42,926 nt of DNA, from NCBI GenBank assembly GCA_013213905.1, contig JABSSQ010000149.1:1-42926 (forward strand), in the 5' to 3' direction. Origin of the DNA: Verrucomicrobiales bacterium. Lineage in GTDB: Bacteria; Verrucomicrobiota; Verrucomicrobiia; Verrucomicrobiales; DEV007. Below, one piece after another: positions 2,351-30,220 of this stretch. Each line of letters starts with the position of its first letter. Positions within the stretch are counted from its first letter, which is position 1. Both the position numbers and the translations under genes were made by a program. The notes under the pieces are model-generated. The model saw only the letters and a list, made by a program, of their open reading frames with translations, made no database searches and was not told the DNA's origin.

Positions 2351-5300
2351 ATGTCGCAATCCCCCTCCAGCTCCACTCCCAGCATCGAAGTCCGCGGTGC
2401 CCGGCAGAACAATCTCCAGGGCATCGATATCGACATTCCAATCGGCAAACTCACCGTCGTGACCGGCCCGAGTGGATCGGGCAAATCGAGCCTCGCTTTC
2501 CAGACGCTTTACGCCGAAGGCCAGCGTCGCTACGTCGAAACCTTCTCACCCTACACCCGGCAGTTCTTCGACCGGATGGACAAGCCGCAGGTCGATGCCA
2601 TTAACGGCATCCCTCCGGCGATCGCCATCGAGCAACAGAACGCCGTTAAGACGACACGCTCCACTGTCGGCACGATCACCGAGATCAACGACTACCTGAA
2701 GCTGCTCTTTCCCCGCCTCTGTCGCGGATACGATCCCGTCAGTGGCGACCTGATCGAACCGGATTCTCCCGAATCGATTCACCGCAAGACGGTCGAGCGT
2801 TTTGGCAAGGACACCACCCTGCTGATTCTCTTCGGAGTTCCCGTCCCCGCTGACACTCCCGTGGCTGAGTTCTTCGAGTTTCTCCAGCAACAGGGCTACG
2901 CCCGCGTCTGGATCTTTGGCAAGGCCTACCGCGTCGACTCCCCGGAGGCCTACGATAAGAAAAAACTGCCCGGCAAAGTCGACGTTATCCAGGACCGGGT
3001 TGCGCCGGCCCGTCGCTCCCGCTTTCTGGAGGCTCTCGAAAGAGCTCTCGATTTCGGAAAAGGAGTCGTCACGGTCGTCGATCCCGATTCCGGCGAGCAG
3101 GCCGCCTTTTCCCGGGGATGGACCTCGCCCGAAACCGGCACGGAGTTAAAGCCACCGGTTCCCGGCCTCTTTTCTTTCAACCACCCCATGGGTGCCTGCC
3201 CCGAGTGCCGCGGCTTCGGACGCGTCATTGGAATCGACGTCGATAAGGCCCTCCCTGACAAATCGCTCTCTATCGCCGAGGGGCTGGTTCGCGCTTTTCA
3301 GGGCGATGCCTACTACGAATGCGAAGAAGACCTCGAGCGCTGCGCTCGCGCCCGGGGCCTCAGCACAGTGACGCCATTTGACGAACTCTCAGCGGAAGAT
3401 CAGCAGTGGATCATCGAAGGCGAAGGCGGCGACCCGGAGGATGCCTACCAAGACGGATCGTGGTACGGCGTTCGCGGCTTCTTCGACTGGCTCGAGTCAC
3501 GGGCCTACCGCATGCATGTCAGGGTTTTCCTGAGTCGTTACCGCAGCTACACCACGTGCAAAGCATGCAAAGGCACCCGGCTCAAATCCGAGGCTCTTAA
3601 TTTCAAGATCAACGACAAAACCCTACCCGACCTCTGGCAACTCTCGATTGATGATCTGGCGACCTTCTTCGCCACCATCAAGGTGCGCCCCGAAGACCGC
3701 ACCGCCACGATGCTCTACGAGGAGGTCAGCAACCGTCTCGGCTACCTTCGGGAGGTGGGACTGGGTTACCTCAATCTCGACCGGCCCACTCGCACCTTAT
3801 CCGGCGGTGAAACCGAACGCGTCAATCTCACCACTTGCCTGGGCGCCAGCCTGACAAACACACTTTTTGTTCTCGATGAACCCACCGTCGGACTGCATCC
3901 GCGCGACGTCGGCAAACTCATCGGCGTTATGCAACGCCTCCGCGACCTCGGCAACACGATTGTTGTTGTTGAACACGAGGAAGCGGTGATTCGATCCGCA
4001 GATCACCTCATCGACATTGGGCCGGGACGCGGCGAAGGCGGAGGCCACCTCGTCTACGCCGGCCCCGGGGCTCACACCGCAGCTCAGGCCAAACCCTTCG
4101 CTAAGGAACACCCGGACGCACTCACCCTGCAATACCTCAGCGGAAGCCGCGAGATTGCGGTCCCCCAAAAGCGGCGCAAGCCGAAGCACAAGCTCACCAT
4201 CAAGCGGGCCACTCAGCACAACCTCAAGAAAATCGACGTCGACATTCCCCTCGGCGTTCTCTGCTGTGTGACCGGCGTGTCAGGGTCCGGCAAGTCCACC
4301 CTGATTCACTCCGTTCTCTACGGCAACCTGATGAAACAGCTCGGTCTTTCCGGTGCTGACACCGAGGTAGGTTCAAGCAAGGGCATCAAGGGAGTGGAAC
4401 GCGTTCGCGAGGTCGTCATGGTCGACCAGGCGCCGCTCGCCAAGACACCGCGTTCAACTCCGGCCGTTTACACCGGAATCTTTGAGCCGATTCGCAAACT
4501 CTTCACCGAAACGCCGGAGGGCAAATCGCGCGATCTCACTCCCGGCTATTTTTCCTTCAACAGCGGCGCTGGTCGCTGCTCCCGCTGCATGGGCAACGGT
4601 TACGAAAAAGTGGAGATGCAATTTCTCAGCGATCTCTACGTGACCTGCCCCGAGTGCGAGGGCAAACGCTACACCCCTGAAGCGCTTGAGATCGAACTGG
4701 AAGACAGGAACATCCACCAGGTCCTCACCATGACGGTGACCGAGGCGATCGAGTTCTTCTTCGTGATCGACAATCGCAAGGCCCAGAATGTGGTCGAGGG
4801 GCTCCAACTTCTCTCTGATGTCGGCCTGGGCTACCTGCGACTCGGCCAACCTCTCAACACTCTGAGCGGCGGGGAAAGCCAGCGCCTCAAGCTTGTTGGC
4901 CACCTGCTTGCCAAACCGAAGCAGGCCAGGATGGACGGCAAAACCAGCCTGCTCATCTTCGACGAGCCTACCACCGGCCTCCACTTCGATGACACCGGCA
5001 TGCTGCTGAAAGTTTTCGAACGCCTCGTCGATGCCGGCGACTCCGTCATTGTGATCGAGCACAACCTCGACGTCATCAAATGCGCGGATCACATCGTCGA
5101 CCTTGGCCCGGAGGCCGGAGCACACGGCGGAGAGGTGGTCATCGCCGGCACCCCTGAGGAAGTCATGGCTCATGCCGGATCACACACCGGTCGCTACCTT
5201 TCCCAACATCTCACTCCCCGCCTTTCGGTGGCCCGCGAACAGCTCAAGGTCGCCGATTCTTCGAATCCGGTTCTCTACGAAACTGATCGCGCAAACAACG

Positions 5301-7990
5301 TCATCCAGCTACACGGTGCCCGGGAAAATAACCTCAAGGAAATCGACGTCACTATTCCGCGGGAGGAGTTTGTCGTCGTCACCGGCCTGAGTGGATCCGG
5401 CAAATCCACCCTCGCTTTCGACATTCTTTTCGCCGAAGGCCAGCGACGCTTTCTCGACAGCATGTCCACTTACGCGCGGCAGTTTGTCGAGCAGATGGAG
5501 CGCCCTGACATTGATATTGTTTCAGGCCTGCCTCCCACAGTCGCGATCGAACAACGCATCTCCCGGGGAGGCGGCAAATCCACCGTCGCCACCGTCACCG
5601 AGGTCTGGCATTTCCTTCGCCTTCTCTACGCCAAGGTCGGCACCCAGTTTTCTCCCGACTCAGGAAAGAAGGTCGAGAAGCAAAGTGTCACTTCCATCGT
5701 CACCCGAATCCGTGAGACCTCGAAAAAGGGCAAGCGCCCCGTCAAGGTGATGGCTCCGCTGATCAAGGCGAGAAAAGGGTACCACACCGATGTCGCAGAA
5801 TGGGCCGGGCGACAGGGTTTTGACACCTTGCTGGTCGACGGGCAGTTCGTCGAAGTGGATTCGTTCGAGCGCCTCGAACGATTCAAGGAACACACCATCG
5901 ACGTCATTGTCGGCGAAGTGACGCCGAAGACCTCACCGGAGGACGTGCTCGAATTTGTCGAAACCGCGCTTCGTCTCGGCAAACGCACGCTGCGTTTCCT
6001 CGATCCTGACAACCGCATTCAGGTGGCGAATACCGAAATGAGCGATCCCGACACCGGTCGCTCCTTCGAAGAGCTCGATCCGCGTCTCTTTTCCTACAAT
6101 TCCCCCCACGGCTGGTGTCCCCTCTGCCGGGGTTACGGCACTGTCGAGAAACGGGTGGTCCGTTCCGACGAGCGCGACGCCGAATCACAGCTCGACGCGG
6201 AGCTGCGCGAAGAGTATCGACGCTCGCGCGCCAAGGATGAAAGCGACACCGAAGTTTGTCCTGAGTGCAACGGCGCCCGCCTCAACGAAGTCGCGCGATT
6301 CGTTCGACTCGAACAGGGCAAGAAGCAGATCGCCATTCACGAGATTGCCGCGCTCTCGGTCAGCGAAGCGAAGCAACTCATCAGCGGATTCAAATTCGAC
6401 AAGCAGGCCGCGCTCATCACTCGCGATATCATTCCCGAGATTACCCAGCGCCTGCATTTCATGGAAGAAGTCGGTCTGGGCTACCTTCAACTCGACCGTT
6501 CCGCCACCACGCTCAGTGGCGGGGAAAGCCAGCGCATTCGCCTCGCTGCTCAGTTGGGGTCCAACCTGCGCGGTGTGCTTTACGTGCTCGACGAGCCTAC
6601 CATCGGACTGCACCCGCGGGACAACGCCAACCTGCTCGACACTCTCAGCGCGCTCAAGGACAAGGGCAATTCCTTGGTCGTGGTGGAACACGACGAGGAA
6701 ACGATCCGGCGCTCCGATCACCTCATCGACCTTGGCCCGGGAGCCGGCCAGTTCGGCGGTGAAGTCGTCTGGGAAGGACCACCGAAACAACTCTTCAACG
6801 GCAAGAAGAACGGCAGCCAGTCCCCTACTCTCGAGGCTTTCACCAACCCGCTCATCCACCCCATGAAAGGGGGCCGCCGCAAGCTCCCTGCGAAGAACCG
6901 CAAAGCGGGCTGGATTCGAATCAAAGGCGCCAGCACCAACAATCTAAAGAACATCGATGTTCGCATTCCGGTAGGACGGCTCACAGTCATCGCCGGCATC
7001 TCGGGATCCGGGAAATCCAGCTTCATGCGCGGCGTGCTGAAGCCTGCGGTCGATTCGGCGCTGAAAAAGCCAACCCGCAAAACCGCCAAGAAGAAAGCCG
7101 CGCCAAAGAAAAGGGCAACCGTGAAGAAGACCTGGAAAGAGATCGAAGGTGTCGATCAGCTCGAAGCGGTCTACGAAGTCGACCAGTCCCCCATCGGAAA
7201 GACCTCGCGCTCAACGCCGGCGACCTACGTCAAAGTCTTCGACGAGATCCGGAAACTCTTCGCCCAGCTGCCTGACGCCCGCGCCCGCGGCTATACTGCC
7301 TCGCGCTTCTCCTTCAACACCGAAGGCGGCCGCTGCGAATCCTGTAAGGGCAACGGCCAGATCAAGCTGGAGATGACCTTCCTTCCCACAACCTACGTCA
7401 TTTGCGAGGAATGTCAGGGGCGGCGGTTCAACAGCCCCACCCTCGAGATCGAATACAACGGCAAATCGATCGGAGACATCATGGATCTTTCAATCGAGGA
7501 AGCGGCAGACTTTTTCCAAGGGCACCCCAAGATCTCCCGCACCCTTAATTTGATGAGAGACACCGGGCTCGGTTACCTCCGCCTCGGCCAACCCAGTCCC
7601 TCCGTTTCGGGCGGGGAAGCTCAGCGCATCAAACTCGTCACTGAGCTAACCCGCGGCATGGGTCGCTCCGCCAATGCCAGGCTGCGCCAGAACCGCCAGC
7701 CGAAGTCGAACCTTTACCTCATCGAGGAACCCAGTATCGGCCTGCATACCACCGACGTAAGGCGCCTGCTCGAGGTCATCCACCGTCTCGTCGATGACGG
7801 ACATACCGTCGTTGTCATTGAGCACAGTCTCGAGATCATGGCCGAAGCCGACCACCTCATCGAAATTGGTCCTGAAGCCGGAGCGGACGGAGGCACCGTC
7901 GTGGCTGCGGGAACTCCAGAGGAAGTGATTCAAGTCAAAGAGAGCCGAACGGCACCTTTTTTGAGACGTCAGTTAGGGTCCGGAGGATAA
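2351..7990 (+). CDS. uvrA: Tandem (double-length) excinuclease ABC subunit UvrA
   Basis: DNA damage recognition ATPase of nucleotide excision repair, about twice the usual length of about 940 residues because two UvrA copies are fused. All four ATPase modules are visible. Walker A motifs lie near residues 40 (GPSGSGKSS), 642 (GVSGSGKST), 1012 (GLSGSGKST) and 1549 (GISGSGKSS). Signature motifs are LSGGETER, LSGGESQR, LSGGESQR and VSGGEAQR. Walker B/switch motifs are FVLDEPTVGLH, LIFDEPTTGLH, YVLDEPTIGLH and YLIEEPSIGLH. Paired CxxC zinc motifs occur in each half (for example CPECRGFG and CKACKG; CESCKGNG and CEECQG). Module 4 differs, with Glu for the Walker B Asp and a Lys-rich insert (KKPTRKTAKKKAAPKK) near 1573-1590. 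The same architecture is known from Chlamydiae. An AAGGA abuts the ATG with no spacing, so the ribosome-binding site is poor, yet no other start fits. Confidence 0.96.
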   Translation: MSQSPSSSTPSIEVRGARQNNLQGIDIDIPIGKLTVVTGPSGSGKSSLAFQTLYAEGQRRYVETFSPYTRQFFDRMDKPQVDAINGIPPAIAIEQQNAVKTTRSTVGTITEINDYLKLLFPRLCRGYDPVSGDLIEPDSPESIHRKTVERFGKDTTLLILFGVPVPADTPVAEFFEFLQQQGYARVWIFGKAYRVDSPEAYDKKKLPGKVDVIQDRVAPARRSRFLEALERALDFGKGVVTVVDPDSGEQAAFSRGWTSPETGTELKPPVPGLFSFNHPMGACPECRGFGRVIGIDVDKALPDKSLSIAEGLVRAFQGDAYYECEEDLERCARARGLSTVTPFDELSAEDQQWIIEGEGGDPEDAYQDGSWYGVRGFFDWLESRAYRMHVRVFLSRYRSYTTCKACKGTRLKSEALNFKINDKTLPDLWQLSIDDLATFFATIKVRPEDRTATMLYEEVSNRLGYLREVGLGYLNLDRPTRTLSGGETERVNLTTCLGASLTNTLFVLDEPTVGLHPRDVGKLIGVMQRLRDLGNTIVVVEHEEAVIRSADHLIDIGPGRGEGGGHLVYAGPGAHTAAQAKPFAKEHPDALTLQYLSGSREIAVPQKRRKPKHKLTIKRATQHNLKKIDVDIPLGVLCCVTGVSGSGKSTLIHSVLYGNLMKQLGLSGADTEVGSSKGIKGVERVREVVMVDQAPLAKTPRSTPAVYTGIFEPIRKLFTETPEGKSRDLTPGYFSFNSGAGRCSRCMGNGYEKVEMQFLSDLYVTCPECEGKRYTPEALEIELEDRNIHQVLTMTVTEAIEFFFVIDNRKAQNVVEGLQLLSDVGLGYLRLGQPLNTLSGGESQRLKLVGHLLAKPKQARMDGKTSLLIFDEPTTGLHFDDTGMLLKVFERLVDAGDSVIVIEHNLDVIKCADHIVDLGPEAGAHGGEVVIAGTPEEVMAHAGSHTGRYLSQHLTPRLSVAREQLKVADSSNPVLYETDRANNVIQLHGARENNLKEIDVTIPREEFVVVTGLSGSGKSTLAFDILFAEGQRRFLDSMSTYARQFVEQMERPDIDIVSGLPPTVAIEQRISRGGGKSTVATVTEVWHFLRLLYAKVGTQFSPDSGKKVEKQSVTSIVTRIRETSKKGKRPVKVMAPLIKARKGYHTDVAEWAGRQGFDTLLVDGQFVEVDSFERLERFKEHTIDVIVGEVTPKTSPEDVLEFVETALRLGKRTLRFLDPDNRIQVANTEMSDPDTGRSFEELDPRLFSYNSPHGWCPLCRGYGTVEKRVVRSDERDAESQLDAELREEYRRSRAKDESDTEVCPECNGARLNEVARFVRLEQGKKQIAIHEIAALSVSEAKQLISGFKFDKQAALITRDIIPEITQRLHFMEEVGLGYLQLDRSATTLSGGESQRIRLAAQLGSNLRGVLYVLDEPTIGLHPRDNANLLDTLSALKDKGNSLVVVEHDEETIRRSDHLIDLGPGAGQFGGEVVWEGPPKQLFNGKKNGSQSPTLEAFTNPLIHPMKGGRRKLPAKNRKAGWIRIKGASTNNLKNIDVRIPVGRLTVIAGISGSGKSSFMRGVLKPAVDSALKKPTRKTAKKKAAPKKRATVKKTWKEIEGVDQLEAVYEVDQSPIGKTSRSTPATYVKVFDEIRKLFAQLPDARARGYTASRFSFNTEGGRCESCKGNGQIKLEMTFLPTTYVICEECQGRRFNSPTLEIEYNGKSIGDIMDLSIEEAADFFQGHPKISRTLNLMRDTGLGYLRLGQPSPSVSGGEAQRIKLVTELTRGMGRSANARLRQNRQPKSNLYLIEEPSIGLHTTDVRRLLEVIHRLVDDGHTVVVIEHSLEIMAEADHLIEIGPEAGADGGTVVAAGTPEEVIQVKESRTAPFLRRQLGSGG

Positions 7991-10484: not shown

Positions 10485-10584
10485 AAAAGTGCCAGAGAAC
10501 TGCGGCAATCATGGACAAGCTACCGTTGCTGCCTTCCGGCCCTGGCGGGGTTTACCTGCCATGACTCCACAGCCTCTGACGGCG
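10485..10584 (-). ncRNA. ffs: Signal recognition particle 4.5S RNA
   Basis: Small bacterial SRP RNA on the minus strand, between leuC and trpB. The conserved apical part reads CGCCAGGGCCGGAAGGCAGC, with the GGAA tetraloop and the Ffh-binding internal loops. The ends pair well: AGAGGCUGUGG near the 5' end matches CCGCAGUUCUCU near the 3' end, followed by GGCACUUUU, whose short U-run suits termination. The ORFs that the track shows here are shadows. The RNA scaffolds Ffh for cotranslational targeting of membrane proteins. The 5' end is set by a -10-like box just upstream and is uncertain by a few bases. Confidence 0.93.
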
Positions 10585-27089: not shown

Positions 27090-27962
27090 CTACCCAAACA
27101 CCACGGTACGGTTACCATGCACGAGGGTGCGGCGCTTGAGGTGGAGCCAGACCGCGCGGGAAAGCACACTCTGCTCGAGAGCCCGCCCCTTGCGCACAAA
27201 ATCAGCGACGGAATCACTGTGGGAGACCGGGGTAACGCCCTGAAAAATAATGGGACCTTCGTCGAGATCTTCCGTCACGTAGTGACTGGTGGCGCCGACG
27301 AGCTTCACGCCACGCGCGTGGGCGGAGTGATAGGGTTTTGCCCCGGGGAAAGCCGGAAGAAAGGAATGATGAATGTTGATGATCCGGTTGGGAAAAGCCT
27401 CGGTCATCTTTGGACTCAGGATCTGCATGTAGCGAGCCAGCACAACGAGATCAATCTGGTGCTCCCGCAAGAGCGCGATTTCTCTCTCTTCCTGCTCTGC
27501 CTTTGTCTCCTTTGTGATCGGGAAATGATGAAACGGGATTCCAAACCGGTCAGCTGCCGGCCGAAGATCTTCGCGGTTGCTGACGATCAGCGGAATATCC
27601 ATTCGTAGCTCGCCGCTCTCGTGACGGGAAAGTAGATCGTAGAGACAGTGATTGTCCCTGGTCACAAAGAGCGCTACCCGCGGAACGATATCCGAAAAAT
27701 AGAGTGACCAGTCCATGGAGAACTTTTCGGCGAGTGGTGTGATCGCCGATCCGATCTCATCGCGGGCCACAGCGAAACCATTCGTCTCCCATTCCACGCG
27801 CATGAGAAAAACACCGTATTCACTGTCCACGTGCTGGTCGACGTCGACAATATTCCCCTGGTTCTCGTAAAGAAACGCTGACACGGCCGCGACAATACCG
27901 GGCTGATCAGGACATGAGACAAGCAAGATCGCTGTCGGGGAATCTTTAGAGGAAGCACTCAA
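27090..27962 (-). CDS. purU: Formyltetrahydrofolate deformylase
   Basis: Hydrolyses 10-formyl-tetrahydrofolate to formate and tetrahydrofolate, balancing one-carbon pools and feeding PurT-type purine synthesis. It has 290 residues: an N-terminal ACT domain (about 10-85, ILLVSCPDQPGIVAAVSAFL) and a formyltransferase-like domain. The catalytic Asn-His pair lies in RIINIHHSFLPAFPG and the Asp in ATSHYVTEDLDEGPIIFQ. The start codon is TTG (27962), backed by AGGTGG a few bases upstream. The 3' end of tRNA-Leu lies only 25 bases upstream on the same strand, so purU either shares the tRNA transcript or has a promoter inside the tRNA gene. Confidence 0.93.
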   Translation of the reverse strand: MSASSKDSPTAILLVSCPDQPGIVAAVSAFLYENQGNIVDVDQHVDSEYGVFLMRVEWETNGFAVARDEIGSAITPLAEKFSMDWSLYFSDIVPRVALFVTRDNHCLYDLLSRHESGELRMDIPLIVSNREDLRPAADRFGIPFHHFPITKETKAEQEEREIALLREHQIDLVVLARYMQILSPKMTEAFPNRIINIHHSFLPAFPGAKPYHSAHARGVKLVGATSHYVTEDLDEGPIIFQGVTPVSHSDSVADFVRKGRALEQSVLSRAVWLHLKRRTLVHGNRTVVFG

Positions 27963-27987
27963 GGTCCACCTGAAAGAAAAAAAGAAG

Positions 27988-28069
27988 TGCTCGAGGGGGG
28001 AATCGAACCCCCACGGGTTGCCCCACAGGATCCTTAATCCTGCGCGTCTACCAATTCCGCCACCCGAGC
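27988..28069 (-). tRNA. tRNA-Leu with anticodon AAG
   Basis: An 82-base class II tRNA. The acceptor GCTCGGG pairs with CTCGAGC and the discriminator is A. The D arm is GCG/CGC, the anticodon stem CAGGA/TCCTG with loop TTAAGGA, the variable arm TGGGGCAACCCGT, and the T arm GGGGG-TTCGATT-CCCCC. The CCA end is not encoded. Position 33 is T and 34-36 are AAG, so it should read CUU and, if A34 becomes inosine, also CUC and CUA. G37 matches the CUN-type Leu tRNAs, which implies a change from the usual GAG. A34 is unusual in bacteria outside tRNA-Arg(ACG). Confidence 0.93.
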
Positions 28070-28666: not shown

Positions 28667-30220
28667 TCAGGCCCAAAGGTTCCGGTCCAGTGTGCGGTAT
28701 TGAATCGCTTCCAGCACGTGCCTCTCTTTGATGTCGCGCTCGCCTTCCAGATCAGCCAGGGTTCGGGACACCTTGAGAATCCGGTCATAGGCGCGCGCAC
28801 TGAAGTTGAGGCTGTCCATTGCCTGCTCCAGGGTGCGCTCACTTGCGGGGCTCAACTCACAGAACTCCGAGACCTGTCGGGTCCCCATGTCGGAATTGCA
28901 GTTCACTCCGGGATGCGAGATGAAGCGCTGCAGTTGAATCGCCCTGGCTTCCTCAACGCGCTGACGAATCACAGCAGAAGATTCTCCTCCCTTTTCGGTG
29001 CGGAGTTCCCGGTAGTCCACCGCCGGCACATCAATGTGAAGATCAATGCGATCCAGCAAAGGACCACTGATGCGTTGCCGGTACTTCTCAATCTGGTTGG
29101 GCGAACACCGGCATTCACGGGCCGGATCGGCGAGATAACCACATGGACAGGGGTTCATGGCCGCGACGAGACTGAAGCGACTCGGGAAGGTAAACTTGCC
29201 TGCCGCCCGGGAAATCGTAACCCGACCGTCCTCGAGAGGTTGGCGCAAGACCTCAAGAGTGGACCGTCGAAACTCCGGCAACTCATCGAGAAACAGCAAG
29301 CCGTTGTGAGCCAGGCTCACTTCCCCGGGGGTCGGATGGCTGCTACCGCCTAACAGACCAACATCGGAAATGGTGTGGTGAGGCGAACGAAAGGGGCGCG
29401 TCGCCAGAAAACTGTTCTTCGCATCGACCAGCCCGGCCACGCTGTGAATCTTGGTTGTCTCGATCGCTTCCTGCTCCGTCATGGTCGGCAGGATGGTGAC
29501 CAGCCGTTTGGCGAGCATGGACTTGCCGGTCCCCGGGCTGCCGAGCATGAGGATATTGTGTCCCCCGGCCATGGCCACCTCGAGGGCCCGTTTCGCATGA
29601 GCCTGCCCCTTCACTTCATTGAAATCGATCGGGTAATCCTGTTTCGATTGAAAGAACGCCTCCCGGTCAAGATCATGAGGTCGTAGGTTTTTGTCTCCGG
29701 ATAAGAGCTCGTAAGCCGATCGAATCGTATCGACACCGTAGACATAAATCCCCTCGACGATGCTGGCTTCGGCAGCATTTTCAGTAGGAACCAGGATAGC
29801 TTTTTTCCCTTCGCGCTTCGCCTGGATGGTCAGAGGCAGGATTCCCTTAATCGGTCGCACCCGCCCGTCCAACGCCAATTCTCCGGCGATGGCACATTTT
29901 TCCAAAGCGCCTTCCTTCAGCCGGCCGTTTCTTTCTTCGTCCAACGCCGCCATCCCGAGAGCGATCGGCAAGTCAAAGCTGGGACCTTCTTTTCGAATGT
30001 CCGCCGGCGCCAGATTAATGGTGATAGGTTTGTTAGGCCACCTCAGGGCGCTGTTTTTGATCGCTGTCGTCACCCGGTCGACACTTTCGCGAACTGCCGC
30101 ATCCGGTAATCCCACCAGCTTGATATCAATCTGTCCGCTGTCACCGGCGTTAACCTCTACTTCAACCGAATGAGCGTCCACGCCATGCAACGCTCCTGAA
30201 GAAACACAAGTAAGGGCCAT
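28667..30220 (-). CDS. comM: YifB/ComM-family Mg chelatase-like AAA+ ATPase
   Basis: A 517-residue AAA+ ATPase. In naturally competent bacteria ComM is a helicase that extends branch migration during integration of incoming DNA; in others the role is unsettled. The N-terminal Lon-like domain (about 1-170) includes [14 protein letters not shown] and the [20 protein letters not shown] block. Walker A is [14 protein letters not shown] near residue 222, Walker B is [10 protein letters not shown], and a zinc-like [15 protein letters not shown] motif follows. The C-terminal Mg-chelatase part contains [20 protein letters not shown]. It lies 57 bases after priA on the same strand, so both DNA-processing genes may be cotranscribed. 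No other competence gene is in the window. Confidence 0.93.

What the first reader, a model, noticed from the sequence alone, without database searches (positions are those of the whole stretch)
27988..28069. tRNA-Leu with anticodon AAG (A34) in a bacterium
The anticodon loop is TTAAGGA within a perfect 5-bp stem, so the anticodon is AAG. The rest of the tRNA is intact, and G37 fits the CUN-reading Leu group, which points to a G34 to A change from the usual GAG. In bacteria A34, edited to inosine by TadA, is normally confined to tRNA-Arg(ACG). This case would need either a TadA of wider specificity or decoding by unmodified A34.
Basis: partly seen in the sequence, partly recalled or inferred. 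Interest (0 to 1): 0.62.

Follow-up and report, generated by a model that had tools for sequence, protein, structure and literature searches.

The report
Order-wide tRNA-Leu(AAG) replacing tRNA-Leu(GAG)
This bacterium reads two common leucine codons with a transfer RNA whose wobble base is written A, very probably edited to inosine by the ordinary enzyme TadA; it is not an oddity of one genome but a fixed replacement across a whole order of Verrucomicrobiota, a trait so far reported almost only from lactic-acid bacteria and their kin.

Summary
In detail: window 27988-28069, minus strand, is an intact tRNA-Leu with anticodon AAG. It is not a sequencing error. The same gene is found in 54 of 75 genomes of its family by one strict pattern, in families f2 and f3 of the same order, and in a named relative, Akkermansiaceae UBA2381, beside comM as here. 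The own genome has the other four Leu tRNAs (UAA, UAG, CAA, CAG) but no GAG. GAG was found in one genus of the family only, which lacks AAG. CUC is the commonest Leu codon (42%; 60% in gltA/sucCD), so the A34 tRNA must read C; unmodified A34 reads mainly U. A complete TadA is present. Best explanation: TadA edits A34 to I34 and the tRNA takes the place of tRNA-Leu(GAG). A second family (f4) of the class has AAG apart from the order (one clade rejected, AU p = 4e-6). tRNA-Leu(IAG) is proven in Oenococcus and Streptococcus; a 2026 paper states that almost all bacterial cases are in Bacilli. So: a known kind, in another phylum, order-wide and probably twice. Editing itself is inferred, not shown.

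The parts
27988..28069 (-). tRNA-Leu(AAG), 82 nt, CCA not encoded
   Evidence: orthologues
28026..28042 (-). anticodon arm CAGGA-TTAAGGA-TCCTG; A34 of the anticodon AAG is at 28035
   Evidence: sequence directly; alignments
27972..27987 (-). T-rich tract directly 3' of the tRNA (CTTCTTTTTTTCTTTC), possibly the transcript end
   Evidence: sequence directly; role inferred, not tested

Best explanation
A34 is deaminated to inosine by the cell's ordinary TadA, the enzyme that also treats tRNA-Arg(ACG); the resulting IAG anticodon reads CUU, CUC and, redundantly with tRNA-Leu(UAG), CUA. The replacement happened at or near the base of the order of this bacterium (families f1, f2, f3) and, most simply, a second time in another family (f4) of the same class. 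Shown: the anticodon, its conservation, absence of GAG where AAG is present, heavy CUC use, a complete TadA. Inferred: the editing itself, and that TadA does it.
For: AAG gene in 54/75 family genomes (35 of 42 good ones, 13 of 18 genera) by a strict pattern; several apparent misses have it (G032, G064, G067, and all four f3 genomes examined). f2: AAG in most genomes sampled. GAG in only 3 of 75 family genomes, all of genus g6, and those lack AAG; no family genome had both. Own genome: Leu anticodons UAA, UAG, CAA, CAG, AAG and no GAG among 35 tRNA matches. CUC is 491 of 1156 Leu codons in 28 window genes and 51 of 85 in gltA+sucC+sucD; no other Leu tRNA of the genome has a wobble base expected to read CUC well. 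Unmodified A34 tRNAs in E. coli pair mainly with U-ending codons, and an AAG tRNA there is partly converted to inosine (PMC11066159). TadA of the own genome: 166 bits, over the NCBIfam cut-off of 150, with HAE and PCPMC motifs; nearest solved structures are TadA proteins, 7cph and 2b3j. The anticodon loop differs from that of the own tRNA-Arg(ACG), GA[CTACGGA]TC, only at 35 and 32 (in most relatives, GA[CTAAGGA]TC, only at 35). TadA edits tRNA-Leu(AAG) in S. pyogenes and S. pneumoniae.
Against: No RNA data: inosine is not observed. E. coli TadA does not efficiently edit S. pyogenes tRNA-Leu(AAG), so editing by any given TadA cannot be assumed. No TadA residue separates AAG from GAG genomes convincingly: the GAG genus g6 has the same TadA type as its AAG relatives, and f4 has another type. 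The likeness of the loop to tRNA-Arg(ACG) is weak evidence, since tRNA-Leu(UAG) of the same genome has the same surroundings, GA[CTTAGGA]TC, and some f4 members keep G38.
Confidence: 0.88

Rival explanations
1. A34 stays unmodified; the tRNA reads CUU well and CUC by weak A-C pairing, perhaps helped by tRNA-Leu(UAG).
For: O. [quoted passage not shown] there are no RNA data here.
Against: CUC is the most used Leu codon, most so in central-metabolism genes, which would then depend on the weakest pairing; unmodified A34 reads mainly U-ending codons (PMC11066159); AAG is kept in members with very different C/U preference at third positions.
Confidence: 0.07
2. Sequencing error, or an unused copy beside an unseen tRNA-Leu(GAG).
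For: The own assembly is 91% complete in 535 contigs, so one missing tRNA alone would prove nothing.
Against: Same base and intact fold in dozens of independent genomes, including two single-contig ones (G095, G326); no family genome has both AAG and GAG.
Confidence: 0.01
3. Another deaminase, or a dedicated second TadA-like protein, makes the inosine.
For: The own genome has two weaker deaminase-family matches (56 and 47 bits).
Against: Those lie far below the TadA cut-off and are of a length and score that fit guanine-deaminase-like and RibD-like relatives (inference); most of the 30 genomes tested have exactly one match near or over the cut-off.
Confidence: 0.04

Closest known systems
tRNA-Leu(IAG) of Lactobacillales (Streptococcus, Oenococcus oeni)
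   Same: tRNA-Leu(AAG) in place of tRNA-Leu(GAG), tRNA-Leu(UAG) kept, TadA present (PMC13249217, PMC11472039).
   Different: Another phylum; here CUC rather than UUA is the leading Leu codon of the window; S. pyogenes Leu(AAG) and Arg(ACG) loops differ at 35 and 37, here at 35 (and 32 in the window), with G37 in both; editing not yet shown here.
Bacterial tRNA-Arg(ACG) edited by TadA
   Same: A34; loop CUACGGA nearly the same as CUAAGGA/UUAAGGA; same presumed enzyme.
   Different: Different amino acid and base 35.
Eukaryotic tRNA-Leu(IAG) made by ADAT2/3
   Same: AAG takes the place of GAG.
   Different: Bacterial TadA rather than the ADAT2/ADAT3 heterodimer; in the own genome only Arg(ACG) and Leu(AAG) were found with A34 among the tRNAs called.

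Membership tests
tRNA-Leu of the CUN group | tRNA fold with the longer variable arm, A73, anticodon NAG followed by G37 | tested here: met
tRNA-Leu(IAG) replacement type (as in Lactobacillales) | AAG present and GAG absent in the same genome and across relatives | tested here: met
tRNA-Leu(IAG) replacement type (as in Lactobacillales) | TadA encoded, with catalytic and zinc-binding motifs | tested here: met
tRNA-Leu(IAG) replacement type (as in Lactobacillales) | A34 converted to inosine in the cell | not testable with these tools
   needs tRNA sequencing
tRNA-Leu(IAG) replacement type (as in Lactobacillales) | Leu codon use shifted relative to GAG relatives | tested here: inconclusive
   IleRS genes of 27 genomes: CUC/(CUC+CUU) broadly follows general NNC/(NNC+NNU) in AAG and GAG genomes alike, with exceptions such as G095 (0.45 against 0.89); one gene per genome only

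The most novel reading that the evidence does not exclude
Wobble inosine in tRNA-Leu is an ancestral, order-wide trait in a second bacterial phylum and arose at least twice there, with remodelling of the anticodon arm towards the tRNA-Arg(ACG) type and one genus that may have gone back to GAG; TadA of these bacteria should then also accept UAAG sites in mRNA and have a wider editome.
Probability: 0.5. Interest if true: 0.55.

Novelty: new member of a known kind. Interest (0 to 1): 0.4.

Why it matters
The spread of wobble inosine beyond arginine is a hallmark of eukaryotes and is known in bacteria mainly from Bacilli; PMC13249217 says almost all bacterial tRNA-Leu(AAG) genes are there. An order of Verrucomicrobiota that replaced GAG by AAG, plus a separate case in the same class, gives natural replicates for how TadA widens its substrate range, whether loss of the G34 tRNA is reversible, and what the change does to codon use.

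Tried and rejected
Origin from a duplicated Leu(UAG) or Leu(CAG) by a changed wobble base: the anticodon arm resembles Leu(UAG), but the body matches the GAG tRNA of genus g6 best (61/65 outside the arm, against 56/65 for own CAG and 47/61 for own UAG); CAG is close enough that tRNA sequence alone does not settle it. A diagnostic TadA residue: none convincing. A codon-use shift with AAG: not visible in one gene per genome. The first pattern suggested that f3 and several f1 genomes had neither AAG nor GAG; a covariance model showed AAG there, in f3 with a GGTATAC D-loop. Whether genus g6 reverted to GAG or kept it: the IleRS tree nests g6 within the order, but holding it outside is not rejected (p-AU 0.147). 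All AAG genomes as one clade is rejected (p-AU 4.5e-6). Paper searches for this trait in Verrucomicrobia or Akkermansia found none; the library is limited to open-licence papers.

Full report
What is there. ARAGORN and Rfam agree on a complete tRNA-Leu on the minus strand at 27988-28069, anticodon AAG. It lies between a gene that looks like formyltetrahydrofolate deformylase (27090-27962, minus) and a comM-like gene (28667-30220, minus), both named from their sequence and not searched; a T-rich tract follows the tRNA. CCA is not encoded in the window copy but is in several relatives.

Where it is. The window is contig 56 of a 4.96-Mb, 535-contig assembly, 91% complete. The nearest named genome by the comM-like protein is Akkermansiaceae bacterium UBA2381 (85% identity), which has the same tRNA-Leu(AAG) near comM (L033:7719-7800). 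Another genome named Akkermansiaceae, D14.bin.19, also has AAG (L036/G465). So the organism belongs to the Verrucomicrobiota, near Akkermansiaceae by NCBI naming. The genome collection uses codes (f1, g1 and so on) without names.

Is it an error or a spare gene? No. A strict pattern finds AAG in 54 of 75 family genomes. Of the apparent misses re-examined with a covariance model, G032, G064 and G067 have AAG; for G011 none was seen. All four f3 genomes examined have AAG, and so do most f2 genomes (two more f2 genomes missed by the pattern, G125 and G343, have it). Two single-contig genomes, G095 and G326, carry it. GAG appears in three family genomes only, all of genus g6, which have no AAG. 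In the own genome the other Leu tRNAs are UAA, UAG, CAA and CAG, with no GAG.

Where it came from. Outside the anticodon arm the window tRNA shares 61 of 65 bases, and the whole acceptor stem, with the GAG tRNA L131 of genus g6; within the arm only 8 of 17. So AAG and GAG look like one gene with a remodelled anticodon arm rather than one point change. The own CAG tRNA is next (56 of 65). In the order the arm is GA[YTAAGGA]TC in the sequences listed; GAG tRNAs of other families mostly have loops of the YTGAGGG type.

Twice. Family f4, elsewhere in the class, has AAG too, with another acceptor stem (GGTCGAG) and partly another arm. An IleRS tree of 27 genomes puts f4 among GAG families, apart from the order, on well-supported branches; forcing all AAG genomes into one clade is rejected (p-AU 4.5e-6). 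Two gains is the simplest reading; an early gain with several losses is not excluded by such counts. Genus g6 falls inside the order but with weak support (p-AU 0.147 for leaving it outside), so reversion and retention of GAG both remain open. In the other families of the class listed the gene reads GAG; the list was cut off and the pattern misses some D-loops.

How it works. In 28 window genes CUC makes up 491 of 1156 Leu codons, CUU 194 and CUA 28; in gltA, sucC and sucD CUC is 51 of 85. With no GAG tRNA, the AAG tRNA has to read CUC. Unmodified A34 pairs mainly with U (PMC11066159), inosine with U, C and A. The genome has one TadA over the curated cut-off (166 bits, cut-off 150), with TAHAE and EPCPMC motifs, closest by sequence to known TadA structures. 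TadA editing of tRNA-Leu(AAG) has been shown in Streptococcus, and inosine in it in O. oeni (PMC11472039, PMC13249217, PMC8072771). Hence A34-to-I34 editing by TadA is the best explanation. It is inferred.

What could not be shown. No residue in TadA marks AAG genomes. The likeness of the Leu(AAG) loop to the Arg(ACG) loop is suggestive, but Leu(UAG) has the same frame. Codon use of IleRS shows no clear difference between AAG and GAG genomes.

What is known. tRNA-Leu(AAG) in place of GAG is documented in Lactobacillales, and PMC13249217 states that almost all bacterial cases are in Bacilli. I found no paper on the trait in Verrucomicrobiota, but subscription papers are not held, a 2018 paper on inosine-adapted codon use in two bacterial phyla could not be read, and tRNA databases probably list such genes. 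I file it as a new member of a known kind: the mechanism is known; the phylum, breadth and second origin appear, within that limited search, not to have been described.

Noticed in passing
window 2351-7990 (+): One open frame of 1879 aa that looks like two UvrA proteins fused head to tail (judged by eye from repeated ABC-ATPase motifs); about twice the usual UvrA length.
   Followed up: no
window 10487-10581 (-): Bacterial small SRP RNA (RF00169, 67.6 bits) between genes that look like leuC and trpB.
   Followed up: no
L149 (TadA of G003, same genus): This TadA looks mosaic: first half of the type seen in family f6, second half of the type of this order; recombination or chimeric assembly.
   Followed up: no
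L032 (G000:C470:7500-9006): Cluster of low-scoring tRNA-like genes, one with an apparent four-base anticodon CTCG; perhaps phage tRNAs or a foreign contig.
   Followed up: no
L131-L133 (genus g6): The only genus of the family found with tRNA-Leu(GAG); possible reversion from AAG while keeping the order's TadA type.
   Followed up: partly
L225 (G095), L218 (G453), L220 (G318), L221 (G326), IleRS genes: CUC against CUU use departs from the general NNC/NNU ratio in f2 genomes, in both directions (G095 0.45 against 0.89; G453 0.81 against 0.48).
   Followed up: no
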